Assembly: GCA_009760885.1 (NCBI GenBank)
Contig: CM019697.1
Span: 24,814,210 to 24,878,209 of the forward strand
DNA from: Achatina immaculata
Lineage: Eukaryota; Mollusca; Gastropoda; Stylommatophora; Achatinidae
Length of the DNA stretch: 64,000 nucleotides
Direction: 5' to 3'
Shown here: piece by piece, positions 29,401-63,781 of the stretch
Position numbering within the stretch: the stretch's first letter is position 1
How the letters are laid out: every line of letters begins with the position of its first letter
The notes under the pieces: model-generated
What the model was told of the DNA's origin: nothing
The model's input: only the letters and a program-made list of their open reading frames with translations
Databases searched by the model: none
Translations under genes and position numbers: made by a program

Positions 29401-32400
29401 TATTTTAGTGAGCATGCCACATATCATCACAAGATGATATCATATAAATCTACAAGTAGATCTAGACTTCGCCGATGGCAGATCTAGATTTAGCCGATGG
29501 TAAGCAGGACACAATTATCAGCTAAAATTATCACATTACTTCTTTTTTCCCAAACAACACTGCATGTATGGAATCTTCATACATTTACATTTATTTTGAT
29601 GCATAATAAGTATACTTTTTAAAGTGGAAATAATTTGTTACATTCACTTTTTCAACTATATCCAAAAAATATCACAACGACCATGCATTTAATTTAGCAA
29701 AAATGGAACGTCCTGATTTTGCCTCTGGCAGGGAATAAGTTAATGCACTGTAGTTCTAATATTCTTCATTACTGTCCTGTGCTGGCTTCCCAGCTTACCC
29801 TATCTCTTGTCATGATGGCACACATAGGGGAGTCATCTTCCCAGCTTACCCTATCTCTTGTCATGATGGCACAAATAGGGGAGCCATCTTCCCAGCTTAC
29901 CCTATCTCTTGTCATGATGGCACACATAGGGAAGTCATCTTCCCAGCTTACCCTATCTCTTGTCATGATGGCACACATAGGGGAGCCATCTTCCCAGCTT
30001 ACCCTATCTCTTGTCATGATGGCACACATAGGGGAGCCATCTCCCCAGATCACTTTGTCTCTTGTCATGATGGCACACATAGGGGAGTTATCTCCCCAGA
30101 TCACCTTGTCTCTTGTCATGATGGCACACATAGGGAAGTCATCTTCCCAGCTTACCCTACCTCTTGTCATGATGGCACACATAGGGAAGTCATCTTACCA
30201 GCTTACCCTATCTCTGATGGCACACATAGGGAAGTCATCTTCCCAGCTTACTTTATCTCTTGTCATGATGGCACACATAGGGGAGTCATCTCCCCAGATC
30301 ACCTTGTCTCTTGTCATGATGGCACACATAGGGGAGTCATCTCCCCAGATCACCTTGTCTCTTGTCATGATGGCACACATAGGGAAGTCATCTTCCCAGC
30401 TTACCCTATCTCTTGTCATGATGGCACACATAGGGAAGTCATCTTCCCAGCTTACCCTATCTCTTGTCATGATGGCACACATAGGGAAGTCATCTTCCCA
30501 GCTTACCCTATCTCTTGTCATGATGGCACACATAGGGGAGTCATCTTCCCAGCTTACCCTATCTCTTGTCATGATGGCACACATAGGGGAGTCATCTTCC
30601 CAGCTTACCCTATCTCTTGTCATGATGGCACACATAGGGGAGTCATCTTCCCAGCTTACCCTATCTCTTGTCATGATGGCACACATAGGGAAGTCATCTT
30701 CCCAGCTTACTTTATCTCTTGTCATGATGGCACACATAGGGGAGTCATCTCCCCAGATCACCTTGTCTCTTGTCATGATGGCACACATAGGGGAGTCATC
30801 TCCCCAGATCACCTTGTCTCTTGTCATGATGGCACACATAGGGAAGCCATCTTCCCAGCTTACCCTATCTCTTGTCATAATGGCACACATAGGGGAGTCA
30901 TCTTCCCAGATCACCTTGTCTCTTGTCATGATGGCACACATAGGGAAGTCATCTTCCCAGCTTACCCTATCTCTTGTCATGATGGCACACATAGGGGAGT
31001 CATCTCCCCAGATCACCGTGTCTCTTGTCATGATGGCACACATAGGAAAGCCATCTCCTTTGCTCACTCATTCTTTCTCTTGCTATGATGGTACACAGCT
31101 ACTTCCTGTCTAAGCGCCCCCTGACAATGCATGCTAGTCACCTTCTGTCATACTTCTGCAGGATTTTTACCCACCTGTATTTTTCCCTCTGCTGTAACTC
31201 CAAGACACTTCAGTTGTGTGATTCTAAGATTATTTATAATTCCTTCCTTTAATTACTGTTGTTCCAACATTTGTTTCTTTATTTATATACAATGTCCCAA
31301 AAACTGACAGAAAGATGAAAATATTAATGAACTAACAAATTCACTATTTCATAAACAAAACAACACCCTGAAATCTACATCCAAAACCACACTGGTCCAC
31401 TATCATAAAACTTTGTCTTTTCCACCGTTCCTAAATGCAGACATCTGCCCTGTCTGTCAAACAGCAGTATCACAAATGGGGCACCACAGAGAAGTGGGAC
31501 AGGATCTTTATCAAACTTTGATTTATCTGACTGTGCCAAGAGTGACAAATCCAATAATTTTGATTTTTCCGACCATGGCAAGAGTGACAACTCTTTGGTA
31601 ATTTTGATCTGTCTGACCATGCTAAGAGTGACAACTTTTAGGTAACTGATCCTCTGGCAATGATAACAGTGACAATCCTTGGCCTTCATCACAACTTGAT
31701 ACACTTACCTGTAGTGAGCAGAAAATATCATACGCTGCAAAAATATGGGCTTGGCCAAATGTATTCACCACCGTCCACAAAAAGGGGAGCAATACAGGGA
31801 CCAAAGGGAGAATCCCATGAACCTGCCAGTTTGATTTAATGAATACAGAGTTTTACAGCAAGTTTACAACTCATCATAAATATAATACACAATACTGTAG
31901 CAAATTTATGACTGATTATACACAAAAAAGTTTGTGAATATTCTGTGTGAATAAATTTAGTAGCTGAATGTTCCATTCCGTAGCACAAGAATGTCATCAC
32001 TACTGGCAAACAAGTCAGTGACCCAAGCCACAAAGCACTCAGAAGAAAAGCAAACTTTGAAAATCATTATAATCATCAGCAATGGTCACTATACTTGGAT
32101 GTGCATATAGACGAAGCAAAAATCCCCCATCTAAACTTGATGTTCCCATATTTTTAAGTCCTGTTTGGAAGATTCATCTCTTTGTCTTTTAAACATGGTG
32201 GGTGATGGTTGAGATCAGCTTGTTGTGCAGTAATTTGTTCAGAGATTGCAGCATTCTTGACATTGAAGCTTTGTCAAGTTTCAGCAAAGGGTTGGATTTT
32301 GCAGCAATTAATTGCTAGAACACCTTCTGTGTGTTGCGGGACACGAACCTGGGGCATAATTCTTCATGCTAGAGATTGCAAGTGGTCACTACATAATCAT

Positions 32401-34537: not shown

Positions 34538-37500
34538 AATTTTGAGAGAGAAATATGAGATAAGAAACCAGCACAATCTAAAATCTTATTCAGGATATAC
34601 ATTTTTCAATAATGCAAACAAAAACACAAAAAAAATTAAAATAAATGTAATACATGGAAAATATTCTGTACAGAATACTCTGTGAAAAAGCACTTCTAAC
34701 AGCCAAATTAGCAGAGGAACCAAGTAGTACAGCGTATAGTGGAATGTGTTCTCATGTGAAGACTGCACATAAGAGATCTTTACCAGTTCCTTCCAGCCAA
34801 CCATACCTTAAAAATGGATAACTAACAAACTAACTACTGGGACAATTACTCTGGTGAATATCTGCCTACAATGTTATATACACTGGGTTATGTTCTACTG
34901 GCAGGATTTCGAAAAGGGAGATAAGGAATCTCAACCAGATCCTTACTCTAAGAATAATACTCGAAGAACATATTGAAAAGCAAAAACCATTAATCCTGAA
35001 CTTTACAGACATTAAAAAGGCATCTGATAGCATACCCAGAGATTCACTGTGGAGAATTTTAAGACTATATGGAATACCATCTAAAACTGTCAACATCATT
35101 AGAGATCTCTACAACAGATAAGTCTGTGCAGTCAAGACAGAAGAAGGAATGAGCATATGGTTTCAGACTGAAATAAGCATGAAACAAGGATGTATATTAT
35201 CTCCCTTGCCTTTTTGGAATTGCATAGACTTTATAATGAAAAGATGCTGTACAGGTAAAACCGGCATTGATTGGGTACATGGGACCCAAATAGAAGATCT
35301 TGATTTTGCAGATGACATAACTTTTATCAGTGACAATGTGAAATCGATGCAGGAAAAAACAACAGATTCCCCATCTTCCTTGGCTAGCAAAATAGGTATT
35401 GAAATTAATGAAGACAAAACAAATACTATGAAATTTCTCATTAATCAAGAAGGAAAAATATACAGAGTTGTTGATGAAGTAAACCAATTTGCATACCCTG
35501 GCAGCTACATAGACCAGGATGGTGACACCTGGATGGAAGTTAGAATTAGAACTGCAAAAGCACCACAGTCCTTCAAGAATCTTGAGAACATAAGGAATTC
35601 AAAAGCTATAAGCACAAAAACCAAGTTAAGATTATTTAATTCAAATGTGATATCCACCCTCATTTATGCATGCAAAAGATGGAAATAAACTAAAGAAATA
35701 GACAAGAAATTAGACTCTTTTGAAAACAAATGCCTCAGGAAAATACTTGGTATAAAGTGGAATAAATTTAAGAACACAGAGATAAGACAGATGAGCAAAC
35801 AACAACCTGTCTCATGGGTGATCAGAAAAAGAAGGACATAAGTAGGCCATGTGATGAGAAGAAACAATCAGAGAATACCAAAACAAGCTATCAAGTGGAG
35901 CACAACAGGCTGAAGAAAAAGAGGTCGACCACATGAAATTCTAAAGAGGACACTGTTAAGAGAAGCCAGTTTAGTGAGCATAACATCCCCTGATGAAGTT
36001 GAAAAACTCGCCGAAAACAGGAAAACTTGGCAAACAACTATGTGAGCCCTATGTGACGTTTAATGGCACAGGAAGGATGTAAGATGTTCTACACACTATC
36101 TTCCTACAATGTTATATATACTGGATTATGTTCTATACAGTATCTGCCTACAAGGTGCTGTATAATGGATTATGCTGTACATAGTACTGGTGTATTAAGA
36201 GAACATTGTTTATCATATAAAACTACTGGTATATTAAGAGAACATTGTTTATCATATAAAACTTGTCTCATTACTATGAGAATACTCTTGAGCCCACACT
36301 ACAAGAATGCTCTGAAGCAAGGAACAGACGAGATTTCAACACTAAAACTTACAAATATGCCAGGTAAAAATCGTCTCTCTAACCAAATATTGCACACAGA
36401 GTGACGCTCGTTCTCCATAAAACTGAATGGCTTGTTAGGGATGTCTTGGAACATTAATCTATGTGAGATTATAAAGTCCTATAAATTCAAACGTTTAGTG
36501 AATTAAATGTAAAATTGAAACATACCATACCATTTTTTTTTTTTTGGGGTGGGGTCTGGTCCTCTCTGACCCAGTCCGACATTGATACAAAGTGGCACAC
36601 ATAAAGTGTATGTATGTTTATAAACACCTCATCTATAAACAGTTTATTAGCTACAAAACAGTTTATTTGCTAACAATGTACATATGACATGTGAAAACTG
36701 TACTTTGTGCTTGGAGGCCAATTTTTGTATAAAAGAAATAAAGTAGTTCACATGACAAGAGTAAAGCTTTGACTATTTGTTAACAATAACATCTCATTTT
36801 TTTCTAGTACCCAATGTGACCCTCATGAAAGCTTTCAATTTTTGAAGCTCAGTGACATTTGTGTATTAATGATTATAATGAGACAAGGAACTGATGAAGC
36901 AGAAACCAGAAACATCAGATATGTGTGTATCAAGACAAACAGAAACTGGAAACATTAGAGATGTGTTTATCAAGACAAACAGAAAGTGGAAACATCAGAT
37001 ATGTGTTTATCAAGACAAACAGAAACTGGAAACATCAGAGATGTGTTTATCAAGACAAACAAATGAACTTCTCAGAGAACTTGTAGAACACAGAAAACTA
37101 GAAGGAAGAGATATTAAAATTCTCCAGGCATGTCATGACAAGACAGAAGTTACAGAACTCTGGCATGTCTTGGAAAGACAGAAGTTAGAGAACTCTGACA
37201 TGTCATCATCTAATGAACCTGACACTGGAACTCTGACTTGTCATTAGAAGCCAGAAGATCTGAATAGTTTGATCAACTGACACAGGAGCTGGAAGACAAC
37301 AGATTAAATTAGAAACACTCATTCAAAGATGAAGATCTTTAACTACTTTGAAGATATTTGAACTCACTCAGTCAATCATTTGCATGCCCCTTGTGGAACT
37401 TTGCCTCCCTAAAAGCACTCCTGTAGGCCTCTAGGTTGTAACCAAGATGGCCTGCTGCTGATGCATCCATTTGCAGATTATCAATGATGTCTTGCAGCCA

Positions 37501-40500
37501 TCTTCTGGATATATATATATAGATCTTTGAACTACACATTTTTATTCCCAAATGATTAAGAATTGGGCGCACAGGCCTGTCTGACATACTGCCATCACAA
37601 CTTTTTCACTGTTCCAGATATTCTGCAGATATGCCATGCATATAACAAACATAACAGTAAAAAATCTGAGAAAAATAAAACTTACCCTTCACTCTTATCT
37701 ATGCACTCAATACAGAAAGCCTTACATACATGAAAAAAAAAGGAAACATATCAGCTGTAGCATGAAACACAAACTTCATCTGACTTAACTTATTCAATAT
37801 AAGAAATATAAAACTGATGCCAGTGATTCTGACAAAAGAAATACCTAAAATTCTTGATAATGGGGGTCTCCTTCAACATAAACTTTTTTGTTGACATGGG
37901 CACACGAGGCTGTGGTCCTACTCCCTTTCCGTGAGGGGTTTCAGAAAAATAAATCTCTCCAGCTTGTAGCTCCACATCTCCCTGCAAAATAAAACAAAAA
38001 CATGGAGCCTCACTCTGACATTCATCTCATCAACAATAACAAACAGCCTGTCATATATGTTATATCTGACTTCATCAACAATAACAAACAGCCTGTCATA
38101 TATGTTGTATCTGACCTCATCAACAATAACAAACAGCCTGTCATATATGTTATATCTGACCTCATCAACAATAACAAACAGCCTGTCATATATGTTGTAT
38201 CTGACCTCATCAACAATAACAAACAGCCTGTCATATATGTTGTATCTGACCTCATCAACAATAACAAACAGCCTGTCATATATGTTATATCTGACCACAC
38301 CAACAATAACAAACAGCCTGTCATATATGTTATATCTGACCTCATCAACAATAACAAACAGCCTGTCATATATGTTGTATCTGACCTCATCAACAATAAC
38401 AAACAGCCTGTCATATATGTTATATCTGACCTCATCAACAATAACAAACAGCCTGTCATATATGTTATATCTGACCTCATCAACAATAACAAACAGCCTG
38501 TCATATATGTTATATCTGACCACATCAACAATAACAAACAGCCTGTCATATATGTTATATCTGACCTCATCAACAATAACAAACAGCCTGTCATTTCTGT
38601 TGCATCTGACTGCTTCATTATTTCTTCCCCTCATTTCTTTTGTCAGAGACCACAGAGGACTGTGTTAGAGTGATAGTGTCATTACCAAGTCAGGTACACC
38701 AGAGTTGGCCAAGACCCTATCTTAACTCCTGTCTCAAGCGCCTAGAAATAAGCTCAGCCTGGCTACCTGGGTCTGCTCCCTACTGTCCCCATGCTGAGAA
38801 TTTTGCTTTGTGAGCCTGCTCTGGGTTTTCAGATTAGTGTCACAGTAATCTGCTCCCAATCCAGTCTGATCTTGTGCTCCAAAATCTTCACGGCCTTGAC
38901 TACTAAAGGTATACTGGTCGCAGTTCCAGGGATATCAAAGTAACAACAAAACCTCTTCCATCTGCCTTTTACACAAAAAACTAATCATGTAGCTTATCTT
39001 CAGCGCTAGTTAGATCACAGCCTTGGAAACAGATATCAAAGACTCCATAGTGTAAAGAAGGAAACAAGAAACTCTTACCAACGTTACAGGCTACAGCTCA
39101 CTTTCTCGGGTTCAGTGTTCAGTCTAGCACTTAGAAACATAAGTTCAATGTAGCATATAGAAAGACAGGTTCAATGTAGCATATAGAAAGACAGGTTCAA
39201 GGTAGCTTATAGAAAGATAAACTCAATGTAGCATATAGAAAGACAGGTTCAAGGTAGCTTATAGAAAGATAAACTCAATGTAGCATACAGAAAGACAGGT
39301 TCAATGTAGCATACAGAAAGACAGGTTCAATGTAGCACTTATCAAGATAGGCCCTTTAGCAAGGCAGCCACAATGTAGCATTTTAGTTTCATTTTCACAG
39401 AATGTTTTGCATTTTCTTTACGAAAATTTTGGTTTTGGCACATTCAATCCTTGAAACTAGAAAATGTTGCAGCTACTCAAAATATATCTGGCAAATTAAT
39501 TAAGACAAAAATGACGTCACATGATTAGTTTAACAATTACTTCCAAAGACTGGCAGCGCCCTGGAGCGGCATGTCCTGGTCTCATAACAACAATATCCCC
39601 GCAAACCAGGAGAGGGTTGGGAACATTTGTCACACTGCCGTCACGGACACACCACTGTAAAGAGATGCACGGTGACAGAGGCATGTGCACGTTTGGGAAA
39701 ATGTCTGACTTCCAGCTGTGCTTCTTGCCCGCCTCTGTTCAGGGTGGATGTGCAAAATAAAAAACATGGACACATTTAGTGGAACATCATTTAGTGGAAC
39801 ATCATTTAGTGGAACATCATTTAGTGGAACATCATTTAGTGGAACATCATTTAGTGGAACATCATTTAGTGGAACATCATTTAGTGGAACATCATTTAGT
39901 GGAAAATCATTTAGTGGAAAATCATTTAGTAGAAAATCATTTAGTGGAAAATCATTTAGTGGAACATCATGTACATCATCACAACCAATATAACCAAATG
40001 ACTTCACCTCAAATAGTTGAAAAATAGGACTAGGACACCCGCCAGACATTCTTCTCTTCATCTCTCCATAACAGACATGTTGCTCTTTATTACTCCACAA
40101 CAGATATGTTCCTCTTTATTACTCCACAACAAATTTGTTGCTCCTTATTACTCCACAACAGACATGCTGCTCTTTATTACTCCACAACAAATATGTTGCT
40201 CCTTATGACTCCACAACAGACATGCTGCTCTTTATTACTCCACACAGACATGTTCCTCTTTATTACTCCACAACAGACATGTTCCTCTTTATTACTACAC
40301 AACAGATATGTTCCTCTTTATTACTCCACAACAAATATGTTGCTCCTTATGACTCCACAACAGACATGCTGCTCTTTATTACTCCACACAGACATGTTCC
40401 TCTTTATTACTCCACAACAGACATGTTCCTCTTTATTACTACACAACAGATATGTTCCTCTTTATTACTCCACAACAAATATGTTGCTCCTTATGACTCC

Positions 40501-47193: not shown

Positions 47194-47518
47194 TTATATC
47201 TTATATCCTTCCCGTGCCGTTAAACGTCACATAGGGCTCGCAAAGTAGTTCGCCAATTTTTCCTGTCTTCGGCGAGTCTTTCAACCTCATCAAAGGATTT
47301 TATGTCTGTTAATTTGGCCTCTCTTAACAATGTCCTCTTCAGAGTTTAACGCTGTCTGCCTCTTTTTCTTTGGCCTGTTGTGTTCCACTTGATAGCTTGT
47401 TTTGAGATTCTCTGATCATTTCTTCTCATCAAGTGACCGACATATGTCCATCTCCTTTTCCTGATCACCCATGAGATTGGTTGTTGTTCAGTCATCTGTC
47501 TTATCTCTGCATTGTTTA
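47194..47518 (-). mobile_element. Lineage 1 LINE 3' fragment
   Basis: 325 bp of the tail, nearly identical to 24445-24770, with terminal TATCTTATATCCTTCCCGTG. The protein reads WVIRKRRWTYVGHLMRRNDQ. Confidence 0.92.
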
Positions 47519-48623: not shown

Positions 48624-49299
48624 TGAAGCAGAATCACGGCGCCACTAAAGCAGGATTCCCCTTACAAGGAGACTACTGGTTTGATTGATTCTTCCTGTGG
48701 AGTACAGTTTCAACTTATAAGTTTCTTCTTGTTGCTGGTGTTCTAACCATCACCTAATTTTCTGTATTATACACTAAGAAAATACAACAAGACACCCAGG
48801 CTTTCCACTCCACAAAATTAGTACGAATACAACAACTTGAACATAACTTGGCAGTCTTCCGACCAAAACAAACTGGTCAACAATGAGAATTTCCACAAAG
48901 CCGATTTGTTGTAGTTTATCACCAGACAACACACATTTATTACAGAAATTTACAGCAACAAATGCCCGGCGTGAAATATCTACGCCACATGGGCAAGGAA
49001 AACCTTACACTGATTTATTCATACCAAAAACCATACTTACAGGCTAACCAAGGACTGCAGCCCCACAGAAAAACAAACTAAACTAATTCTGACAACAAGA
49101 CTCGCTCTACCCCATTCTCGTTCGCCCAAACACGTCCTTCCCCTTCAACGTTCACTCAAAGACTGCCTACGACCGGCTTTTTCACACGGACCTTTCTAAC
49201 GACTTCTTTGCACACGTACTTTCCTAATGACGTAGTCTACGCAACACAATTATTAGCAATACACAAAAACTCTCTGAACAGAATGGCTATTCTGTTACA
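48624..49299 (-). repeat. 3' LTR of the Ty3/gypsy element
   Basis: Read on the minus strand it starts TGTAACAGAATAG, the usual gypsy TG start, right after the purine tract, and ends CTGCTTCA. It matches 54483-55129 over nearly its whole length. Confidence 0.85.
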
Positions 49300-49673
49300 G
49301 AATATCTCCCCACCCCCTAAAGGTAGATATTTGGCCATCAAATATCTCCAACCAAACAAAAAAAAATTGCGAACTTGCACAGAAAACTCTCACGAACTGT
49401 GAGCGATAACAATGAATTTAAAGCTGAATATGCAGCTACAAAAAAAATTTCATACACCCACAATTTGTACAAATTAAGTACGTTAAACATTTGTGGTGCA
49501 AACATAATATACATATATTTACAACATTTTTAATACTGAGTTCTGTGAACTACACCATCTATTTCTACTGCCATAGAAATAGGATAGAAGCAAAGGATGA
49601 ACTCCTTTTTCGAAGAACACTACCCAACTAGTGTCTATTGTGCTTTTCTTTAGAAATCCCTATAGATTTCAAA

Positions 49674-50675
49674 CTATTCAGTAGAAGGAATCGCAGTTAA
49701 TATGTTGATCACAACACGTTCTATGAACTGCTTCCTGCCATCTAGTTCCAATAGTGGGAACTTTTCCATAAGTGCTTTATGGAGATCTTTCATCGTGAAC
49801 GTTTCTAAGTCCACGGTATCCATTATCTGCCCTATTGCCACAACGAGCTTACGATCGGAGACGTACAACTGATCAATCTCCGTATCGCAGTCAGCACTAG
49901 GTGAAGTCTCTTCAGGGAAATAATCTTCACTGTGAGGACAGTGTTCCTTCTGAGACTGATGGCAGATATCGGCTCTCCTCCGTTTCTTCCGCCTATGCCG
50001 AGGTCGCAAGTCATCCACCGACATAGGAACTGCTGAGGCGGAAGCATCCACCTCCATATAGTGGTCTGAGGGAGGAGCTCTAGGGACCACTCTCTGCTGG
50101 GTTTCCTTCAGGTACCACGGTGGGAGCCTGGGAACAAAACGAGGAGGCGGCGGAAGAGAAAATCTCTGTCTAATGGGACGCGGCAAGTAAGATCTACAAC
50201 GATCTTGCTGATATTGCCTCTGAAAGGTCCCACCAGGCAACGATACATTAATGGCGACGTCCTGAACCATAGGACACAATGTATTAGTCGCCCTCTCTAC
50301 TCTCTCTTTCTGCTGACAGGGACACGGCAAGTCAGTCTGCACAGAGCAATCTACTACAAGCGGGGGCTCTGCCTGTGAATAGGCCTCCACAACGCTCACT
50401 GACTTTACGACATATGTCTCAGATCCTTGTGACTGAGGGACGTCCCCATCAAGAACGTGAACTGGTACTGGTAGAGAAGTGGCACGATCGAAACTTGCCA
50501 ACGTTGTCTCCCGCGCACCTGGATGAAAGAACATCTGAAGGTCCAGGGTGCGGAGGTTAGCAAACCACCTCTGCAACTTGACGTCTGACATCTCCTGTTT
50601 GCTGAGAAATGCGTCCACCAAGGGTCTATGGTCAGTCTTCACAGCGAAATGTCTATTCGCCAGAAAATATCTCAA
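49674..50675 (-). CDS. RNase H end plus basic tail and DEK_C-like domain, replacing integrase
   Basis: Residues 1-60 finish RNase H (ANRHFAVKTDHRPLVDAF and LQMFFHPGA). From about residue 70 there is no integrase zinc finger or DDE core. Instead there is a Gln/Pro/Arg-rich linker (residues 140-200, FSLPPPPRFVPRLPP), a nuclear-localisation-like RPRHRRKKRRR (about 225-235) and a terminal 55-residue segment LVVAIGQIMDTVDLETFTMK, DLHKALMEKFPLLELDGRKQ, FIERVVINIL. This closely follows the DEK C-terminal fold (human DEK: LEEVTMKQICKKVYENYP... LTERKDFIKTTV). DEK_C domains bind DNA. The role here is inferred. Confidence 0.85.
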   Translation of the reverse strand: MRYFLANRHFAVKTDHRPLVDAFLSKQEMSDVKLQRWFANLRTLDLQMFFHPGARETTLASFDRATSLPVPVHVLDGDVPQSQGSETYVVKSVSVVEAYSQAEPPLVVDCSVQTDLPCPCQQKERVERATNTLCPMVQDVAINVSLPGGTFQRQYQQDRCRSYLPRPIRQRFSLPPPPRFVPRLPPWYLKETQQRVVPRAPPSDHYMEVDASASAVPMSVDDLRPRHRRKKRRRADICHQSQKEHCPHSEDYFPEETSPSADCDTEIDQLYVSDRKLVVAIGQIMDTVDLETFTMKDLHKALMEKFPLLELDGRKQFIERVVINILTAIPSTE

Positions 50676-52138
50676 CTTCTGCGTGGCGTAATGGACAGCA
50701 TACGCTTCTCTCTCGAAAGTAGACCACTTAGTCTGCGAGCGCGACAGCTTCTGCGAAAGAAAATATAGGGCTCTTCAACTGAGAGTCCATCAGAAGAGGA
50801 AGCTGTCTGCACCAAACAGGCTCCAACCGCAACATTGGAAGCATCTGTATACAATGTAAGTGGCTTATGCAAGTCAGGATGCGAGAGAAGCGGTACTTTC
50901 GCAAGGCGATCCTTCAAAGACTCGAACGCCATTTGACAGACTGGAGACCATTTGAACCGATGACCCTTCTTGGTGAGGTCCACTATGGGAGCCACAATCT
51001 CCGAAAAGTGGGGAATGAAACGTCGATAGTAACTGCACGTCCCCAAAAAAGAGCGCACCTCCTTCACATTCAAAGGAGACGGCATGTCGGCAATGGCTCT
51101 GACCTTCTCAGGATCAGGAGATATGCCTGACTGGCTGATGACATACCCGAGATACTTTGTCTCAGAGGCCGCAAAGTGACATTTGGATGGTTTGAGCTTG
51201 ACCTGGTGCTCGCGCAATCGGTCGAATACCGCCTGAAGATCGCGAACATGGTCTTCGATCGTTCCATCAGTGAACACCAGTATATCGTCAATATAGGCTT
51301 GTGCAAACTTGCCTAAGCCCTGTAATACTGTGTCCATGAGTGCGACAAAGGTAGATGGTGCCCCTTTTAAACCAAAGCTCATGTAATTAAAACAGAAAGA
51401 ACCCAGATGACAGCTAAATGCTGACTTCTGCTGAGCGTCCTTGGACAAGGGAATACACCAAAAGCCACAACGAGCATCCAAAGTGCTAAAAAATTTGGCT
51501 TTTCCGATCGTGCTCAGGATGTCCTCAATGCGTGGCAATGGATATGACAATGAACGGGTCACCGCATTGAGTGCACGGTAGTCGCAGCAGAAACGATGGG
51601 TACCATCTTTCTTAGTCACCAAGACAACTGGTGATGACCACTCTGAGATCGTGCGAGAAATTATTCCGTCACGCAACATATTCTCGACGGCCCTCTCTAT
51701 CACCTCTCTACTCGCCAACGGAGTGCGGTAGGGTTTCCTGGAGATTGGCGGATGATCGCCTGTATCAATCTCCATCTGCACTGTCGAGGTATGCGATATC
51801 TCGGAATCAGTCAAGGCAAAGACATCCTTGTTCTGTGTCAACAACCTGGATATTATGTCCTTGTGCACTTCAGGGCACTGAACCTGTCGAACGATAGTCT
51901 CAGAACGACTGTCAGGTGTTGTCTCCTCAGTACCAGAAACCTGCTGGATAGAGTCAACTGACTCCGTGAATGGTGTCAATTTTCCTAAAACACATCCACG
52001 TCTGAGCTCGATGTGTTTACTAGAATGATTAATTACTGTCAACACGGGATAGCGATTAGTGTGGAGCTCACATACTGAGTCCACCAACTCTATCTCCGGT
52101 TGGGACAGTAAGAATGGTGTCTCAATACCCTGAACCAT
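50672..52138 (-). CDS. pol: Reverse transcriptase and start of RNase H
   Basis: 488 codons. Motifs in order: RKPYRTPLASREVIERAV, EWSSPVVLVTKKDGTHRFCC, FFSTLDARCGFWCIPL, MSFGLKGAPSTFVALMD, QAYIDDILVFTDG (catalytic YIDD), KYLGYVISQSGISPDPEKV and VRSFLGTCSYYRRFIPHFSE. RNase H begins at LTLYTDASNVAVGACLVQ (catalytic D in TDAS). The frame breaks near 50765, before the conserved STFEREAYAVHYA helix, which is in the next frame. Confidence 0.94.
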   Translation of the reverse strand: MVQGIETPFLLSQPEIELVDSVCELHTNRYPVLTVINHSSKHIELRRGCVLGKLTPFTESVDSIQQVSGTEETTPDSRSETIVRQVQCPEVHKDIISRLLTQNKDVFALTDSEISHTSTVQMEIDTGDHPPISRKPYRTPLASREVIERAVENMLRDGIISRTISEWSSPVVLVTKKDGTHRFCCDYRALNAVTRSLSYPLPRIEDILSTIGKAKFFSTLDARCGFWCIPLSKDAQQKSAFSCHLGSFCFNYMSFGLKGAPSTFVALMDTVLQGLGKFAQAYIDDILVFTDGTIEDHVRDLQAVFDRLREHQVKLKPSKCHFAASETKYLGYVISQSGISPDPEKVRAIADMPSPLNVKEVRSFLGTCSYYRRFIPHFSEIVAPIVDLTKKGHRFKWSPVCQMAFESLKDRLAKVPLLSHPDLHKPLTLYTDASNVAVGACLVQTASSSDGLSVEEPYIFFRRSCRARRLSGLLSREKRMLSITPRRS

Positions 52139-52172
52139 ATAAGAATTGCCAGATGGAAAATTGGTTGGGCTT

Positions 52173-52724
52173 TCAGTTTAAGAGGAATAAGATTGACGGA
52201 ACGTGGAGAAAGAAGAGAAGACGCTGGACACGAAGAATAGAAGCAATGTGTGCATCTAACTCTAAAGGAATCTTCTTGTTATGTATGTTTAGTGTATTAG
52301 AATTGTAATCGATGACAGCACCAGAACGAGACAAAAAATCTCGCCCAAGGATGGCGGAACGGTTCATGTTGCGAACCACATAAAAGCAATGAGAAACAGT
52401 GACACCAGCAATAGAAATAGGTAGGTAAACTCTGCCAATTACTCTCATGGAAGCTGCAGTAACAGTCTGCAGAGTGATTCTAGCGGGCAAGAGTTTAGGA
52501 GCAGAACGTAAGGATCTGTATACAGAATCCTTGATAAGACAGACACTAGCTCCTGTGTCTAACAATGCTCGAATTCGAAAAGTATCAACAGAAACAAGGA
52601 CAGAAGTAGGAGTCGGGGGATTCGCAGCCACCGAGCGTAGTGGTGTCGCATGCGAAAATGAGACAGAGTGTTTGGCAGCCCCAGATGGTGTGAAGATACG
52701 GTCGGACACATGGGAGCTATTCAT
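52173..52724 (-). CDS. Retropepsin-type aspartic protease of the Ty3/gypsy element
   Basis: It contains IRALLDTGASVCLIKDSVYR, the catalytic DTGA motif of retropepsins, and later NRSAILGRDFLSRSGAVIDY, the ILGRDFL motif characteristic of these enzymes. It is in a different frame from gag and from RT. The C-terminal residues after position 160 are probably read-through of the break. Confidence 0.9.
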   Translation of the reverse strand: MNSSHVSDRIFTPSGAAKHSVSFSHATPLRSVAANPPTPTSVLVSVDTFRIRALLDTGASVCLIKDSVYRSLRSAPKLLPARITLQTVTAASMRVIGRVYLPISIAGVTVSHCFYVVRNMNRSAILGRDFLSRSGAVIDYNSNTLNIHNKKIPLELDAHIASILRVQRLLFFLHVPSILFLLN

Positions 52725-52785
52725 GCGCCGACTTGTCAGTTTAAATGTACACGATCCTTCCTTTCACTCTGCTTACAAAATCGGG

Positions 52786-53637
52786 CTATGTGACCTCTCC
52801 TTCCACAGTTATAACAAGATCTAGTTTCTTGTGGTAGTGTACTCGCAGGTTAGCCTTCCTGGTATTCGATCTCTGGTGGTCTATCCTACCCGCTTCGAAG
52901 TGTGAAGACGTCCGTCGAGAGTTCTCCTGATGAGAGACTAACTGTACTCTCTGCGAATCCACACAAGGAGACTCTCTGTGTGTCGTCACCTCACCGGACG
53001 GTCGAGAACCTGCAATGAAAGCCTGTCGGGAACTACAACTAAGATTCACCGACTTCATGAGGTCATTTTCTTGTAAGGCTAAGTCCACCGCCTGTGAAAA
53101 CAGAACAGGTTTATCTCTTAATAATTTTGATTTCAATGCGCGAGAAAGTAGTGCATCTACAAACGACTGCACCATTTGCCTCTGCGCCAGCGGAGTTACC
53201 CATTCCGCCTCAGAGTAAGCAACTCTGGCTGCCTCACTGATGCGATCAGCCAGCGCTTGAATGGGCTCTCCAGGAGACTGTCGAGTAGAGGCTAGCGTAT
53301 GCCAGGCCTCCTGAGGAGTCTGCAGCACCCCATATCGTGCTAATAAAACAGATACGAACTCCTCCCATGTCTCTTGAATCTGGAGTCGCTGTTTGACGAA
53401 CTCTGCCAGGGAACCTGTGGTGCGTAAATACACCAAGTTCTTCTTACTGGGCACATCAGCATTCCGCATGTCCATAATCTTATTAATCTCATCCAGCCAT
53501 GGTTTCAATTTTGCTGGGTCCCCGTCGAACTTTGCTACAGCTGACATGACGTGGGAAAACCTCAAGTCATTGCTGACTTGGGACAGGGTATCTTGTAATA
53601 ACCCCAGCAAATCTGACGTGGATGGAGCTGAAGCCAT
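52786..53637 (-). CDS. gag: gag of the Ty3/gypsy element
   Basis: 283 codons from ATG at 53637. It resembles retrotransposon capsid proteins: KFDGDPAKLKPWLDEINKIM, then TWEEFVSVLLARYG, SPGEPIQALADRISEAARVA and FVDALLSRALKSKLL. A CCHC zinc knuckle (CYNCGRRGHIARFC, about 52784-52830) follows in a different frame from the capsid, so the frame is broken just before it or a shift is needed. Confidence 0.88.
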   Translation of the reverse strand: MASAPSTSDLLGLLQDTLSQVSNDLRFSHVMSAVAKFDGDPAKLKPWLDEINKIMDMRNADVPSKKNLVYLRTTGSLAEFVKQRLQIQETWEEFVSVLLARYGVLQTPQEAWHTLASTRQSPGEPIQALADRISEAARVAYSEAEWVTPLAQRQMVQSFVDALLSRALKSKLLRDKPVLFSQAVDLALQENDLMKSVNLSCSSRQAFIAGSRPSGEVTTHRESPCVDSQRVQLVSHQENSRRTSSHFEAGRIDHQRSNTRKANLRVHYHKKLDLVITVEGEVT

Positions 53638-54461
53638 TGTGCGTCTATCCGTAGTGCACTCTACTTATTGTTAGTATATACCACTGAAATCAATACAATG
53701 CCACCATATACAGTAATGTCAACAATTATTCAAAACAATGGCCTATCAATTATTCATTATCATGCACTAATGCCATCCAACTAATAACCATAGAAAAGAA
53801 AATCAATTAAATACCATACCACGCACTAACTAACTACACTGAAGTCCTAAGTTAAATGAAAAGCCACAAGAAGTCTATGTACTGTTCCAAATCACCACTA
53901 AAATCAATGTTCAATAAAGTCCCGCTAATAACACTGGAGAAGAATGTCCTACAATGTCTATTCCAAATATAAGTGAATCTACAATGTCTGAAATCCTACA
54001 CCACACATAAAGAAGCACAAACAACGACTGTCCATGTATCAATGTCCACTCCTGTCTATCTGCCGAAATTGTGGAAAACAGTTAATTTTGTCAACATGTT
54101 ACCTCCCCTGTCTGGGTGGAGTTGATTGAGAAGTAAATGTCGCTTGGAACAACTGCTCTAGTTCCTCACCGGATAGTAGTTCAGGTTCAGTCTCACTGGA
54201 CTTGATTGCAGGCACAGGTAAGCGTCAGTAGCTGCACTGCCTAGGACCCAGGACTAGATGTGACACAAACTTTCGGGTAGGCTGGACATCATCGCCGCTT
54301 TGAATAACTTCTACGATAACTGTCTCTGACACTAACAAAAATACTATTCCCTAACCAAAACTGGAAAACCACTGACGAAACATACTAGCAACACACAACT
54401 GTGGGCTAGAAAAAACGTGCATGAACTGTTAAACATGTAAACAAACACACTGGACGTGACA

Positions 54462-54482
54462 AGTGGCCTGATACGGCACCAC
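54462..54482 (-). other. Probable tRNA primer-binding site of the Ty3/gypsy element
   Basis: Immediately inside the 5' LTR the minus strand reads GTGGTGCCGTATCAGGCC, beginning with the TGG that pairs with a tRNA CCA end. The tRNA species was not identified. Confidence 0.6.
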
Positions 54483-55129
54483 TGAAGCAGAATCACGGCG
54501 CCACTAAAGCAGGATTCCCCTTACAAGGAGACTACTGGTTTGATTGATTCTTCCTGTGGAGTACAGTTTCAACTTATAAGTTTCTTCTTGTTGCTGGTGT
54601 TCTAACCATCACCTAATTTTCTGTATTATACACTAAGAAAATACAACAAGACACCCAGGCTTTCCACTCCACAAAATTAGTACGAATACAACAACTTGAA
54701 CATAACTTGGCAGTCTTCCGACCAAAACAAACTGGTCAACAATGAGAATTTCCACAAAGCCGATTTGTTGTAGTTTATCACCAGACAACAACATTTATTA
54801 CAGAAATTTACAGCAACAAATGCCCGGCGTGAAATATCTACGCCACATGGGCAAGGAAAACCTTACACTGATTTATTCATACCAAAAACCATACTTACAG
54901 GCTAACCAAGGACTGCAGCCCCACAGAAAAACAAACTAAACTGATTCTGACAACAAGACTCGCTCTACCCCATTCTCGTTCGCCCAAACACGTCCTTCCC
55001 CTTCAACGTTCACTCAAAGACTGCCTACGACCGGCTTTTTCACACGGACCTTTCTAACGACTTCTTTGCACACGTACTTTCCTAATGACGTAGTCTACGC
55101 AACACAATTATTAGCAATACACAAAAACT
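54483..55129 (-). repeat. 5' LTR, truncated at its outer end
   Basis: It matches the 3' LTR but lacks about the first 30 bp (minus-strand 5' end). Identity stops at CACAAAAACT and lineage 1 LINE sequence takes over. Differences from the other LTR include one deleted base in the CAACATTTATT region and one A/G change. Confidence 0.88.
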
Positions 55130-56187
55130 TTTGATAGCATACACAGAGATTCATTGTGGAGAATTTTAGGTCTATATGGAATACCATCTAAAACTGTCTA
55201 CATCATTAAGGACTTCTACAATGGATTTGTTTGTGCAGTCAAAGCAGAAGAAGGTTATTAGTGAATGGTTCCAGATTGAAACAGGTGTGAAACAAGGATG
55301 TATACTGTCACCTTTGCTTTTTGGAATTACAATAGACTTCATAATGAACAAATGCTGCACAGGTAACACAAGTATTGACTGGGTACATGGAACCCAACTA
55401 GAAGATCTTGATTTTGCTGATGACATAACTCTTATCAGTAACAATGTGAATTCCATGCAAGAAAAAAAATAGATAGCCTGTCTTCACTGGCTAGCAAAAT
55501 AGGACCCGAAATTAAGGACAAAACAAAAATAATGAAACTTCCCATTAATCAAAATGGAAAAATACACGTAGAAGGGACAGATATTGAATAAGTCAATCAA
55601 TTTGCATACCTTGGCAGCTACATAGACCAGGATGGTGACACTAGAAAGGAGGCAGCATCGATCTTCAAGAATCTTGAGAACATATGGCATTCAAAAGTTA
55701 TAAGCACAAAAACCAAGTTAAGACTATTCAGTTCAAATTGAATAATATCCACCCTCATTTATGCATGTGAAAGCTGAAAAACAACTAAAGAAACAGACAA
55801 TAAATTAGACTCTTTTGAAAACAAATGCCTAAGGAAAATACTCGGCATCAAGTGGAACGAATTCAAGAACACTGCAGAGATAAGACAGATGACTGAACAT
55901 TAACTAGTCTCTTGGGTGTTCGGGAAAAGGAGATGGACATATGTTGGTCACGTGATGAGAAGAAACGATCAGAGAATTCCAAAACAAGCTATCAGTGGAA
56001 CACAACAGGCAAAAGAAAAAGAGGCAGACAGCGTTAAACTCGGAAGAGGACATTGTTAAGAGAGGCCAAATTAACAGGCATAAAATCCCTTGATGAGGTT
56101 GAAAGACTCCCCGAAGACAGGAAAAATTGGCGAACTACTTTGCGAGCCCTATGTGACGTTTAACGGCACGGGAAGGATATAAGATAA
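55130..56187 (+). mobile_element. Lineage 1 LINE, 3' half
   Basis: It starts mid-ORF at the codons for FDSIHRDSLW and continues through FQIETGVKQGCILSPLLFGI, LDFADDITLISNNVNSMQEK to a stop-broken tail, ending GGAAGGATATAAGATAAGAT. Its left end is fused directly to the Ty3 LTR. Confidence 0.92.
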
Positions 56188-57304
56188 GATATAAGAATTA
56201 CACAAAATGTTAGTCAGGTTTGACTTGAGGTATATGGCACGGTCAGGAGTAGTATTTTTTTCTCTTTGTGTAGAACTAAAAATAACTTGTTAACCAACTT
56301 GTCTTGGACAAAAACAGAAACATGTGGCCAAGCTTTAGGGTTCCGCGACAAACGCCTAGGATTGAGTTTTCAGTCGCGATCTCTAGAGAGACCCCCCCCC
56401 CCCCCCCAACTGCAGTTCCATCGCTGAACAGCCAAAAAAAAAAAAACTTGCTTTAAAGCGATTTGAAAACCAGAGGCAAGCTGCCGAGTTTGTGAGATAT
56501 TGATATCGATGACTGAGCGAAAGACGACGACGAAGATAGATATGACATTTATTGTGTAGAATATATTTATGAGATGTATTGTAGAAAAAAAAAAACTTCA
56601 AATATAATACTATGTACAAAAATTGTATGAAATATTCTAAAATAGTATGTCCCGTAAAATACATAAAGTTATCAGGGGTAGTCAAACCATGGCTCACAAG
56701 ATATATGCGGCTCTTGAACATAATGCGCGGCTCGCAGGAATATTTTGGCTGAGTTCATTTCTATATGCAATTAATACAAAAATAAATTGTTTTAAAAAAT
56801 GAAGCTTTAAAAGTATTTACCAAGCGTAATCCTGCAGTCCACTAGATTAAAATGTAAGGTGAATGTTCATGCTGTGTAAATATATTCAAAATTTTCGATT
56901 ACTAGATTTGGATCAACAATGATTACGGAAGAATTGTGCCGAAGAATCAGAAATTGTACAAGCCGGTGCTGAAATCAGAATAAATAATATGTACAAGGAT
57001 TTGCGATCATATTTATATACACATTTTGTAACTAATTGTACATGTAGTAATAAAAGCGTGTATATGATAATAAAAATTTTATATAATAATAGTTGTTTAT
57101 ATCTTGTGCCTCTCAAACATTTAAAGTTCGGCTCATAAAGTTTCGCTTTCTCTGAAATATATATCTCATGAAACATGACAGTAATTTTTCGTCTTGGAGG
57201 ATGGTTTTGAATCAAACATATGTTAAATGTGAATTTTGCAGAGCGCTGAACAGTTTCTTTCATGGCTGATACAAGCAAGCAATCATTAGGATGCAGTTCA
57301 CTCA
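56188..57304. other. Intergenic, no gene recognised
   Basis: A poly-C run lies at 56393-56407 and A-runs at about 56433 and 56585. GCGGCTCTTGAACATAATGC at about 56707 resembles the end of some hAT-type elements, but no element was delimited. Confidence 0.4.
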
Positions 57305-59735: not shown

Positions 59736-62700
59736 GTAAGATTACATATTATGTTCATTAATTTATTGTACGCAATGTTGCAGATTATGATGCAGTGTTA
59801 AAGATATATAGAAACTTGTGGTAGGTGCTGCAAAGTGTTGTTTCTGCAGTACAAATGGATATACTTCAGTCATTTATCACCTGTTGTTCTTCTCATCTAT
59901 TTTCCCCCTCTTCCACATTTATTCTTCAATCATGAATTTCGCGTTCATTCCTGTCGAGCAGATTCTTCTTTGTGCAATGTGCAGTGCTTTGCTCTTTTCA
60001 TATTTTCTCGTTCTCCCCTACCCATCTCCCCAAATCTGTGTCTTCATGCCCCTGCATGAGAAAGAAAGAAAGATGACAAATGCTTGTAGTTAATACAATG
60101 TACATTGACGTGAGTTGATAACTACCAAGTGCCAAGCTAATATAGAGGACAGCAGCAAACCTAGTATAGTGTTAAATCTCAGCAGCAGACCTTATAGGCT
60201 AGTGCTAACTCTCAGAGCAAACCCCCCTCTCTCTCTCTCTGAACCTTAAGTGCCCAAGGCACATGGGGCTTCTGCAAGGGTTTTCCATAAAAGCTTGTCC
60301 TTTGTGCTTTTTTTTTCGCTCTTCCCCAAGTAAAGCTCAACATCCTCTCTGTTCTTCTCTGTCTTATTTGGTCTACCCTTACTTTTGTTCCCCTGTGGTG
60401 TCCATCTTAGTGCTATTTTTGGTAAACAAGCCTTAGTCTAGTGTTAACTCTCAGTAGCAAACTTTATAGTCTAGTGTTAACTCTCAGTAGCAAACCTTAT
60501 AGTCTAGTGTTAACTCTCATCAGCAAACCTTATAGTCTAGTGTTATCTCTCAGCAGCAAACCTTATAGTCTAGTGTTAACTCTCAGCAGCAAACTTAGCT
60601 GTGTGAAATCTCAGCGGCAAACCTAGTCTAATGTTAAATCTCAACAACAAACCTTTTTGTCTAGTGTTTAATCTCAGCAGCAAACCTTATAGTCTAGTGT
60701 TAAATCTCAGCAGCAAATTTTATAGTCTGGTGTTAAATCTCAGCAGCAAACCTTTTTTGTCTAGTGTTAAATTTCAGCAGCAAACATTATAGTCTAGTAT
60801 TAAACTTCAGCAGCAAACCTTTTTGTCTAGTGTTAAATATCAGCAGCAAACCCCTTTTTGTCTAGTGCTAAATCTCAGCAGCAAACCCCTTTTTGTCTAG
60901 TGCTAAATCTCAGCAGCAAACCTTATAGTCTAGTGTTAAATCTCAGCAGCAAACCTTTTTTTAATCTAGTGTTGAATACCAGCACCAAACCTTTTGGTCT
61001 AGTGTTAAATCTCAGCAGCAAACCTAGTCTGGTGTTAAATCTGACTTATAACAAACACAAATTGGGTACGTCTGAGCATAATGTCAAATGAAATGATGGC
61101 ATATCCCCATATACACTACAGCTTTTAACCTACTGTCTATCAGTGTTCTGCAGTATCAATGTTCAGTGTATGGTTAGTTACCATTTATCCCCTCCAGTCA
61201 TCAGCCAGTTTTTCTAAAAAAAAACAACTTGTATATGTACCAATAAAAACACTTATATTTCTACTCACAGTTTAATCTGACATCCTAGACAGATTCTTAT
61301 GACCCTGTATTATCCTAAAGCAGTGAGACCGTAGAACTTTCATACACATTTGATGAACATGTAATTAACAGAGAATCTGATTAAGACTTTCATATAATGT
61401 AATTAGTTGATGTAATTTAATTCTGAACTTGAAGTAAATGTGTTCTTCAGATTATGGCTTAAACAGCATCCTGTACCAGCGAGGGCTGTATCCTCCAGAG
61501 AGCTTCACACACACGCAACAGTGGGGGTTAACTATGCTGGTCACCTGCAACAAAGATTTGCAGAAGTTTCTAGATCAAATCATTTCACAAGTCAAAAGTA
61601 AGCTTCTGTGGTTTTATTTGTTCTGTCAGCACATGTAGGGTCCTGGCCTAGCAGCATTGAGGGCAGCAAACATGGCTGTGTTAGAGGGGTGATTTGGTCA
61701 TTCATATTGGCAGTTTGTGGTCGGTCAAAACACTGTTTCCATCTTTCTTTGGTGCTTTTGTAAACAGGCTCATGGGGCTGTTGTATCGCCAAAGCTATGC
61801 GAAGGATATGTGAACTCTGAAATGACCTGACATATTCTGGTGAAAAGAAGTGATCATTCTAATGCAAACTGTCAAAGTTTGGAAAAAAATGGGAAATGTG
61901 CATTAATGTAAGATGTCCATAATTTTTTTATTTATTGATGGTTCCAAGCAGATGTGGTATTGTCTATAATTATAAAGATATGCTGCTGTGTTTCTGAGTA
62001 AATTAGTATGTAGATAAGCTTGTCTCCTAGGTATGTTAATATACAGATGTGGTAGCATGTCTCAGTATGTTAATAAGTAGATGTGGTACTGTGTCTCTTG
62101 GTAAATTAATATGTAGATGTGGTACTGTCTCTCAGTATATTAATAAGTAGATGTAATACTATGTTTCTTGGTATGTTAATGGTAGATGTGGTATTGTGTC
62201 TCTTAGTATATTAGTATGTAAATATGATACTCTGTGTGTGTGTGTGTGTGCTGTGTAATATTCTAGTCTTTAGAAGAATATTATTATTAGTGATGATCCA
62301 GGTTAAATGTTAACAAATTGTAACAGATTTTGCTGATAGAAAGCAAGAGGACATGTGAATGATTATGGCAGAAAAAGATGCCAGAAACAGATTTGTCACA
62401 CACTCTAGAAAGATCCTAACACCAGTGCAGGAACAATCAAGCAGTGAACATCTGAAAGATAGAGGGAGAGAAGCAGTGAACATCTGAAAGATAGAGGGAG
62501 AGAAGCAGTGAACATCTGAAAGATAGAGGGAGAGAAGCAGTGAACATCTGAAAGATAGAGGGAAAGAAGCAGTGGACACCTGAAAGATAGAGGGAGAGAA
62601 GCAGTGAACATCTGAAAGATAGAGGGAGAGAAGCAGTGAACATCTGAAAGATAGAGGGAGAGAAGCAGTGAACATCTGAAAGATAGAGGGAGAGAAGCAG

Positions 62701-63781
62701 TGAACATCTGAAAGATAGAGGGAGAGAAGCAGTGAACACCTGAAAGATAGAGGGAGAGAAGCAGTGAACACCTGAAAGATAGAGGGAGAGAAGCAGTGAA
62801 CACCTGAAAGATAGAGAGAGAGAGATTAGGGACAACCTGGTGAGAATCTGTTGAAGCCAAGATGGATATCATGCAACACCTGGGATGCCATGTAAAGGTT
62901 AGGAGCAGAAAATGCAAAAAGTGGAAGGAATTTGTTCCTGGCTTTTATAAGATGCCATAAATCTTGCTGGATGGTGATTTCTCTGTTGATAAGTGTATAA
63001 GGACATGGTTGGATGAACAGATGAAACAAAACTGCTAGAAAAAAAATGGATTGCTTGAGTAGTCAGTTACTTAGGACACTTTGGTTCTACTCTGAAGTAT
63101 AGTTCTACTCTGAAGCATAGTTTTACTTTGAAGTATAGAAGTATTGCAGCAGGCTCCACAGCTTATTTTCCCAGCCCAGTTCAAGTCCACTGTTTCTCTC
63201 TCACTCTTTTTTTTCATATGGTGTAACCAGTGGAGTCTTTCCAAAGGTGAAAGTCTCTGGAGTTTAGGACATCTTGTGATCACTTCTTGAGGTCCAGCTT
63301 GCATGAGTCCACATCATCTGAACTAGTCTTGGTCTGGTTGTACGTGAGTGTAATGACTGGCTTTCTAGGCCATGACACTTTGTCTTACTGTACACAATGT
63401 ACTTGTACTTCAGATCTTCTGGGCAATCTTTTCAATAAAACTCATTTCTGATACAGTAACTTTACATTTATAGGTCATTCCCCTCCCCCTATAAGTGTCA
63501 TTTATAAATACTGTTTTTTTTTCCTTCTCTACATCAGCTGGAAGCCACAGATTTGGCTGTTATCATTTTTTTGTATGGTTCAGAAACATTGTCACATTTT
63601 CTGAATGTGTAATGTTCTGACTTTCTGTATTAAGAATGTTTAAATTGATTGCTGTTACAGCATGGTTGATGGACATGACTGTTGAGAAATTGGTTCTAGT
63701 TATCAAGGACATAGCCACTAGTGAAGTAGTTGAGAGATGGCAGTTTGATATCGACTGCGACAAAAGCGTTGACGGCAACAC
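59669..63781 (+). CDS. MAD2L1: MAD2 spindle-checkpoint protein, exons 1-3 (3' end outside window)
   Basis: Three exons on the plus strand translate collinearly to the N-terminal half of MAD2, the HORMA-domain protein that binds MAD1 and CDC20 and holds the anaphase-promoting complex inactive until kinetochores are attached. Exon 1 (59669-59735) gives MATGASSVITLKGSTDIVAE, like the GSAEIVAEFF start of the family. Exon 2 (61451-61597) gives GLNSILYQRGLYPPESFT. Exon 3 (63661-63781) gives VEKLVLVIKD and ERWQFDID. Phases 1-1 and 1-1 join the exons exactly, and exon 3 leaves in phase 2. The safety-belt C terminus must lie beyond 64000. Both introns contain minisatellites. Confidence 0.96.
60238..60425 (-). 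mobile_element. Lineage 2 LINE 3' end in MAD2L1 intron 1
   Basis: Minus-strand copy of the element at position 1 (GCCTTGGGCACTTAAGGTTC with GA tail; GRPNKTEKNRED-like frame). It lies antisense in MAD2L1. Confidence 0.85.
60425..61040. repeat. 33-37-bp minisatellite in MAD2L1 intron 1
   Basis: About 17 units of TCTAGTGTTAAATCTCAGCA plus GCAAACCTTATAG, with T-run variants (CCTTTTTTGTCTAG). Confidence 0.94.
61451..61597 (+). CDS. MAD2L1: MAD2L1 exon 2
   Basis: Acceptor TGTTCTTCAG. It encodes YGLNSILYQRGLYPPESFTH, TQQWGLTMLVTCNKDLQKFL and DQIISQVK, aligning with FGINSILYQRGIYPSETFTR of human MAD2. The donor is AAAA|GTAAGC, phase 1. Confidence 0.96.
61990..62255. repeat. Degenerate about 40-bp repeat and GT microsatellite
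   Basis: Repeats of GTAGATGTGGTACTGTGTCT plus TTGGTATATTAATA decay across 61990-62225, followed by (GT)n at 62234-62250. MAD2L1 intron 2. Confidence 0.8.
62437..62820. repeat. 32-bp minisatellite in MAD2L1 intron 2
   Basis: Twelve units of GAACATCTGAAAGATAGAGG plus GAGAGAAGCAGT, with an ACC variant grouped on the right. Open minus-strand frames are artefacts. Confidence 0.95.
62821..63660. other. MAD2L1 intron 2, right part
   Basis: No gene seen. A small 18-bp direct repeat (TAGTTCTACTCTGAAG) occurs three times at 63084-63135. Confidence 0.5.
63661..63781 (+). CDS. MAD2L1: MAD2L1 exon 3
   Basis: Acceptor TTGCTGTTACAG. It encodes WLMDMTVEKLVLVIKDIATS then EVVERWQFDIDCDKSVDGN, matching VQKLVVVISNIESGEVLERW QFDIECDK of human MAD2. 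The donor is ACAC|GTATGT, phase 2. Confidence 0.95.

What the first reader, a model, noticed from the sequence alone, without database searches (positions are those of the whole stretch)
49674..50675. Ty3/gypsy element with a DEK_C-like domain where integrase should be
Seen: after RNase H the frame runs about 270 more codons with no HHCC or DDE integrase motif, then a basic cluster, RPRHRRKKRRR, and a 55-residue end with DTVDLETFTMKDLHKALMEK and LDGRKQFIERVV. Known: the DEK_C fold (DEK, some chitin synthases) has the pattern dLE.vTmk...yP...L..RK.FI and binds DNA. Inference: this element lineage swapped or lost integrase and acquired a chromatin/DNA-binding module, so it may insert by another enzyme in trans or target chromatin through DEK_C. 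The uninterrupted frame with nearly identical LTRs argues that the tail is maintained rather than decayed.
Basis: partly seen in the sequence, partly recalled or inferred. Interest (0 to 1): 0.87.

Follow-up and report, generated by a model that had tools for sequence, protein, structure and literature searches.

The report
Retrotransposon with DEK_C replacing integrase
A jumping-gene family has traded its own insertion enzyme for a small DNA-binding domain, and seems to travel by borrowing that enzyme from a nearly identical partner in the same genome.

Summary
The core observation holds. Pol of this Ty3/gypsy copy ends RNase H – linker – DEK_C (Pfam E 4e-11, full length), and no integrase was found in the element. 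The 'uninterrupted frame' is wrong for this copy: gag, PR, RT and RNase H–tail lie in different frames. The same genome holds at least 121 copies of the tail (this one included), 46 with an open frame of 1000 aa or more (hand count). Across 47 rows, variants shared by three or more copies have N/S 0.29, singletons 0.64 (p = 0.0013): the tail is maintained, though DEK_C alone has too few sites. 15 of 16 readable copies have exact 4-bp target duplications, an integrase signature. An integrase-bearing twin was found: LTR, leader, gag, PR, RT and 3' UTR are 95–99% identical, but about 1.84 kb of RNase H end and integrase stand where this family has a 931-nt DEK_C cassette. On an RT tree the two forms intermix, so backbones seem to recombine. 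Best reading: a coding, integrase-less sister form inserted by the twin's integrase in trans. The DEK_C tail as DNA/chromatin tether is inferred only.

The parts
48624..49299 (-). 3' LTR (TGTAACAG ... GCTTCA), 676 nt
   Evidence: 648 nt shared with the right copy at 99.69%; outer 28 nt at 49272-49299; the same start sequence found in 16 of 20 other copies
54483..55129 (-). 5' LTR, lacking its outer 28 nt at a junction with a LINE fragment
54467..54481 (-). probable primer-binding site just inside the 5' LTR (TGGTGCCGT...; resembles tRNA-His from memory)
   Evidence: sequence shown; tRNA assignment recalled, not tested
52786..53637 (-). gag ORF
   Evidence: Retrotrans_gag below cut-off; shared-variant N/S 0.10, 18 of 21 rows
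52736..52846 (-). gag CCHC zinc knuckle, out of frame with gag in this copy
   Evidence: zf-CCHC E 1.9e-6; in 11 of 20 sampled copies it lies in a 308-309-aa gag frame
52173..52724 (-). aspartic protease
   Evidence: gag-asp_proteas E 3.7e-9
50672..52138 (-). reverse transcriptase and start of RNase H
   Evidence: RVT_1 E 4.9e-32, RT_RNaseH_2; shared-variant N/S 0.10, 42 rows
49674..50774 (-). rest of RNase H, Pro-rich/basic linker, DEK_C (366 aa, open)
49653..50583 (-). DEK_C cassette: the segment that differs from the integrase-bearing twin; boundaries are the ends of the >98% identical matches
   Evidence: 5' break; 3' break
49974..50006 (-). basic cluster RPRHRRKKRRR (tail residues 257-267)
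   Evidence: almost unchanged in 47 rows apart from one K/R position
49698..49862 (-). DEK_C domain (tail residues 305-359)
   Evidence: PF08766 E 4.8e-11; residue counts in 47 rows
49300..49652 (-). 3' untranslated region with purine run before the 3' LTR, shared with the twin
   Evidence: 98.6% identical to L129

Best explanation
This is one copy of a large, young Ty3/gypsy family that exists beside an integrase-bearing twin. Both share LTRs, leader, gag, PR, RT and 3' UTR. In this family a 931-nt cassette (second half of RNase H, Pro-rich and basic linker, DEK_C) takes the place of about 1.84 kb that encode the end of RNase H and all of integrase in the twin. Shown: the swap, the copy number, purifying selection on the tail, integrase-type 4-bp target duplications, and intermixing of the two forms on an RT tree. 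Inferred: RNAs of both forms are packaged together, template switching exchanges their backbones, and the twin's integrase, which sees the same LTR ends, inserts both cDNAs. Inferred and weaker: the DEK_C-tailed Pol holds DNA or chromatin (a nuclear or target tether), which is why it is kept.
For: DEK_C full-length match. No integrase, with positive controls (35, 72). 121 scored matches, 46 with open frames >=1000 aa by hand count, 2 of these with one stop. 4-bp TSD in 15 of 16 readable of 20 examined. Tail shared-variant N/S 0.29 against singletons 0.64, p=0.0013; cassette alone 0.31 against 0.63, p=0.0075; basic cluster to end 0.23 against 0.91, p=0.006. Twin: the ten fetched best hits all have integrase matches, 8 of 10 in 1348-aa frames, with RT 98.8-99.8% nt identical to the window; H2C2 and rve above cut-off in L127. 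One twin copy (L129/L130): LTR 95.9%, 3' UTR 98.6%, leader 97.1% identical to the window, own LTR pair 100%, 4-bp flank repeat gaaa. RT tree: label needs 9 changes, at least 3 forced, 208 of 500 shuffles as low.
Against: No direct evidence of co-packaging or trans integration. The ten integrase-bearing copies are the best hits to one query, not a random sample; LTRs of only one were read. DEK_C alone is not significant (7N:7S against 21N:8S, p=0.18), the RNase H part of the cassette shows no sign of selection (p=0.67), and 12 of 47 rows have a stop or gap in the tail. The Asp of the AD.LSR motif is Ala in 46 of 47 rows, and the Asp of TDHRP is kept in only 35 of 47 (Gly in 10), so RNase H may be impaired. 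Structure models were poor and recovered no DEK structure. Human DEK binds nucleosomes mainly by its SAP domain, its C-terminal domain being auxiliary (PMC12263440, passages), so a lone DEK_C may bind weakly.
Confidence: 0.78

Rival explanations
1. The DEK_C form is a coding parasite of the twin: its tail was selected for particle-level advantage (packaging, interference with integrase-bearing Pol), not for chromatin tethering.
For: Integrase lost, RNase H motif altered in the sampled rows, high copy number, backbones shared with the twin.
Against: Gag, RT and the tail remain under purifying selection, and the kept residues include a DNA-binding-type domain and a basic cluster.
Confidence: 0.3
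2. The tail is a recently captured host exon carried as a passenger.
For: DEK_C is a host chromatin domain; a gag-derived host protein with DEK_C is known in plants (PMC9784723, passages).
Against: The tail differs by 4.5-6% in DNA between subfamilies, shared variants show selection against amino-acid change, and none of them is a stop.
Confidence: 0.05
3. Insertion is by another DDE enzyme such as a Ginger-type transposase.
For: Ginger termini follow TGTNR and metazoan Ginger makes 4-bp TSDs (PMC2836005, passages); this LTR starts TGTAA.
Against: None of the 15 TSDs is CCGG, CCGT/ACGG or TATA; a twin with the same ends and its own integrase is present.
Confidence: 0.04
4. Private deletion or assembly artefact in this one copy.
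For: This copy has several frame breaks.
Against: 121 scored matches on many contigs share the tail, and 15 of 16 readable copies have 4-bp TSDs.
Confidence: 0.01

Closest known systems
Canonical Ty3/gypsy elements (here the same-genome twin L119-L128, and L001-L003)
   Same: PR, RT, RNase H order; for the twin also gag, LTR ends and a 4-bp flank repeat
   Different: integrase and the end of RNase H replaced by linker plus DEK_C
Non-autonomous LTR retrotransposons moved by a partner (BARE-2, Dasheng/RIRE2, LARD, TRIM; recalled)
   Same: a partner with matching LTRs supplies a missing protein
   Different: gag and RT remain coding and under selection, integrase is what is missing, and a new domain has been gained
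Chromoviruses (chromodomain at the integrase C-terminus; recalled)
   Same: chromatin-type module at the end of Pol
   Different: there fused to integrase, here in place of integrase, and DEK_C rather than chromodomain
Plant HadGAG2/Ctrg10 domesticated Copia gag proteins with DEK_C and PC4 (PMC9784723, passages read)
   Same: retroelement protein joined to DEK_C
   Different: host gene from gag, not a mobile element's Pol
Human DEK C-terminal domain (1q1v)
   Same: 17 of 54 residues identical by the printed match line
   Different: no SAP domain reported by Pfam here

Membership tests
Ty3/gypsy LTR retrotransposon | LTRs with TG..CA ends | tested here: met
   window LTR; of 15 copies with TSD, 12 end in CA and 3 in TA
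Ty3/gypsy LTR retrotransposon | gag with zinc knuckle, PR, RT, RNase H in this order | tested here: met
Ty3/gypsy LTR retrotransposon | complete RNase H acidic residues | tested here: not met
   column of the AD.LSR Asp (aligned with L001-L003) is Ala in 46 of 47 rows; a neighbouring Asp could stand in
Ty3/gypsy LTR retrotransposon | integrase downstream of RNase H | tested here: not met
   controls
Ty3/gypsy LTR retrotransposon | 4-6 bp target site duplication | tested here: met
   15 of 16 readable copies of 20, all 4 bp; not readable for the window copy, whose 5' end is missing
DEK_C (PF08766) | profile match above the curated cut-off over the full model | tested here: met
   43 bits against 24.8, 1-54 of 54
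DEK_C (PF08766) | DEK C-terminal fold | tested here: inconclusive
DEK_C (PF08766) | DNA binding | not testable with these tools
   needs an assay
Non-autonomous LTR retrotransposon | lacks a needed enzyme while a partner with matching ends has it | tested here: met
   LTRs compared for one twin copy
Non-autonomous LTR retrotransposon | mobilised in trans by the partner | not testable with these tools
   inferred from 4-bp TSDs and shared ends
Ginger DNA transposon enzyme | CCGG/CCGT or RTATAY target | tested here: not met
   TSD list; target rule from PMC2836005 passages

The most novel reading that the evidence does not exclude
One retrotransposon population keeps two interchangeable Pol C-termini, integrase or DEK_C, on recombining backbones. 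They work as a two-part system: in mixed particles the DEK_C-tailed Pol is the chromatin-tethering subunit and the integrase-tailed Pol the catalytic subunit, a division of labour rather than parasitism.
Probability: 0.22. Interest if true: 0.88.

Novelty: new variant of a known kind. Interest (0 to 1): 0.77.

Why it matters
A high-copy retrotransposon family with selected gag and RT has exchanged its integrase for a chromatin-type domain and keeps the new tail by selection, beside a twin that still has integrase and is over 98% identical from gag to RT. The pair is a natural experiment: nearly the same LTRs, gag and RT, with only the Pol tail different. It allows a direct test of whether a tethering domain on Pol changes where copies land, and of how far retrotransposons share parts in mixed particles.

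Tried and rejected

Rows dropped: L006 (the window itself) everywhere; for RT also L034, L044, L079, L083, L090 (low identity); L073 (wrong side of its copy); 3 of 21 gag rows and 1 of 21 PR rows below 85%. PR shows no difference between shared and single variants (p=0.57). In the first TSD batch two plus-strand copies were fetched too far inside; one could still be read. TSD ends were sought with mismatches allowed, and where two end candidates existed (C11:48298488) the one with a repeat was counted.

Full report
What is there. On the minus strand of window 48.6-55.1 kb lies a Ty3/gypsy element: LTRs 99.69% identical over 648 nt, gag, an out-of-frame zinc knuckle, aspartic protease, RT and a 366-aa frame with the rest of RNase H, a linker and DEK_C. 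DEK_C scores 43 bits over the complete PF08766 model. The linker is rich in Pro, Val and Arg and holds RPRHRRKKRRR. Its codon usage fits gag/PR/RT in the right frame, but modestly (z 4.2 and 2.0 for its halves; DEK_C 1.9). The 266 codons after RNase H stay open in 0 of 5000 shuffles.

Integrase is absent. The gag, PR, RT and tail ORFs and eight other frames around the tail show no integrase model at E<=10. The leader has no frame of 60 aa, and no HHCC pattern occurs in six frames of 49272-54482. The same Pfam scan finds H2C2 and rve in L001, L002 and L003 and in the twin L127.

The copy is not intact; open copies exist. The window copy changes frame between gag and its knuckle, between PR and RT, and inside RNase H, so 'uninterrupted' is wrong here. 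One search covered the window's own genome (1.65 Gb, 145 contigs): 1231 first-look candidates, 121 scored, all matching at 89-100% amino-acid identity, the window included. By hand count 46 have an open frame of 1000 aa or more, two of these with one stop. Of 20 copies sampled for gag-PR, 12 have a 308-309-aa gag frame (11 with the knuckle pattern) and 3 have gag and PR in one frame of 527-532 aa.

Selection. With 47 tail rows, variants carried by three or more copies have N/S per site of 0.29, singletons 0.64 (Fisher p=0.0013). Linker: 0.27 and 0.68 (p=0.004). DEK_C alone: 0.28 and 0.72 (p=0.18, few sites). RT, 42 rows: 0.10 and 0.61 (p=2.7e-11). 35 of 47 rows have no stop or gap in the tail. 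The cassette alone gives p=0.0075, and the stretch from the basic cluster to the end 0.23 against 0.91 (p=0.006); its RNase H part shows nothing (p=0.67). Gag: 0.10 and 0.70 (p=9e-5); PR: 0.22 and 0.35 (p=0.57). The rows were chosen partly for divergence and are related, so the p values are guides.

Insertion signature. Of 20 copies examined, 16 could be read at both ends; 15 have identical flanks of exactly 4 bp, with varied sequences. All 15 start TG; 12 end CA and 3 end TA. That is what a retroviral-type integrase leaves. The window copy cannot be read because the outer 28 nt of its 5' LTR are missing.

The twin. Searching the own genome with the pol of L002 found integrase-bearing gypsies with long open frames. 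The ten fetched best hits all have integrase matches (8 of 10 in a 1348-aa frame) and RT 98.8-99.8% identical in DNA to the window. In the six compared by blastn, leader end, gag, PR and RT match at 98.3-99.4% up to the middle of RNase H (window 50584), where the match stops. Beyond it L127 has a normal RNase H end (ADLLSR), H2C2 and rve above cut-off and a weak integrase C-terminal match. For one twin copy (C12; L129, L130) the 3' UTR is again 98.6%, the LTR 95.9% and the leader 97.1% identical to the window. So 931 nt here (49653-50583) stand for about 1840 nt there. That twin copy has a 100% identical LTR pair (680 nt) and the 4-bp flank repeat gaaa.

Exchange. In a maximum-likelihood tree of 52 RT rows the integrase/DEK_C label needs 9 changes, at least 3 of them forced by well-supported branches, and 208 of 500 random labellings do as well. 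For 9 of 42 DEK_C rows the nearest RT is an integrase-bearing copy. Six DEK_C rows form a branch of their own. The ten integrase-bearing rows are top hits, not a random sample. The simplest reading is repeated template switching between co-packaged RNAs.

RNase H. The column of the Asp in AD.LSR of L001-L003 is Ala in 46 of 47 rows, and the Asp of TDHRP is kept in 35 of 47 (Gly in 10). The cassette therefore brings a changed RNase H end, which may also lean on the twin.

How it probably works. Shown: the cassette, its presence across the family, selection, integrase-type insertion, the twin. Inferred: mixed particles and integrase in trans. Inferred, less sure: DEK_C as tether. In human DEK the C-terminal domain binds DNA but is only auxiliary for nucleosome binding, which rests on the SAP domain (PMC12263440, passages read).

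Literature. The listings of searches (one search showed 12 of 17,840) held no paper that by title or abstract start describes DEK_C in the Pol of an LTR retrotransposon. Nearest is a plant gag-derived host protein with DEK_C (PMC9784723, passages). Surveys of mollusc and annelid gypsy elements (PMC6238403, PMC8556966, passages) mention integrase; the first gives the Gmr1 exception in its position; the passages shown describe no such replacement.

Noticed in passing
L001 (NZ_CP087956.1, 5332 bases): A record filed as a Wolbachia plasmid (from the moth Corcyra cephalonica) carries a gypsy-type PR, RT, RNase H and integrase; it looks like a retrotransposon circle or host contamination, not a plasmid.
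   Followed up: partly
Bacillus licheniformis plasmid records NZ_CP065944.1 and NZ_CP065945.1; Listeria phage record OR849519.1: Gypsy-like RT matches in supposed plasmid and phage records, perhaps eukaryotic DNA.
   Followed up: no
window 55130-56190: A 5'-truncated LINE fragment abuts the 5' LTR exactly where its outer 28 nt are missing; related LINE stretches lie at 6489-7571, 24443-24928, 26261-26626, 35025-36085 and 47197-47516.
   Followed up: partly
window tail, residues 144-148 (SVQTD): An SVQTD motif in the linker, and STQTD in the RNase H-integrase spacer of L003, resemble dynein LC8-binding motifs (recalled); may be chance.
   Followed up: no
window 29684-31201, 12807-13946, 37893-38747, 39728-41393, 62343-62918: Long minisatellite arrays with units of 15-51 nt, some open in frame for hundreds of codons.
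   Followed up: no
G000:C24:8201787 and C13:53074523 (L113, L114): Divergent DEK_C copies whose 3' UTR matches (85-88%) but where no match to this LTR follows, so the cassette may also sit on another LTR type.
   Followed up: partly
L035, L038, L040, L042: In these copies the tail is 94-95% but the RT 97-98% identical to the window, as expected if backbones are renewed by recombination; in others (L036, L041, L045) both are about 94%.
   Followed up: partly
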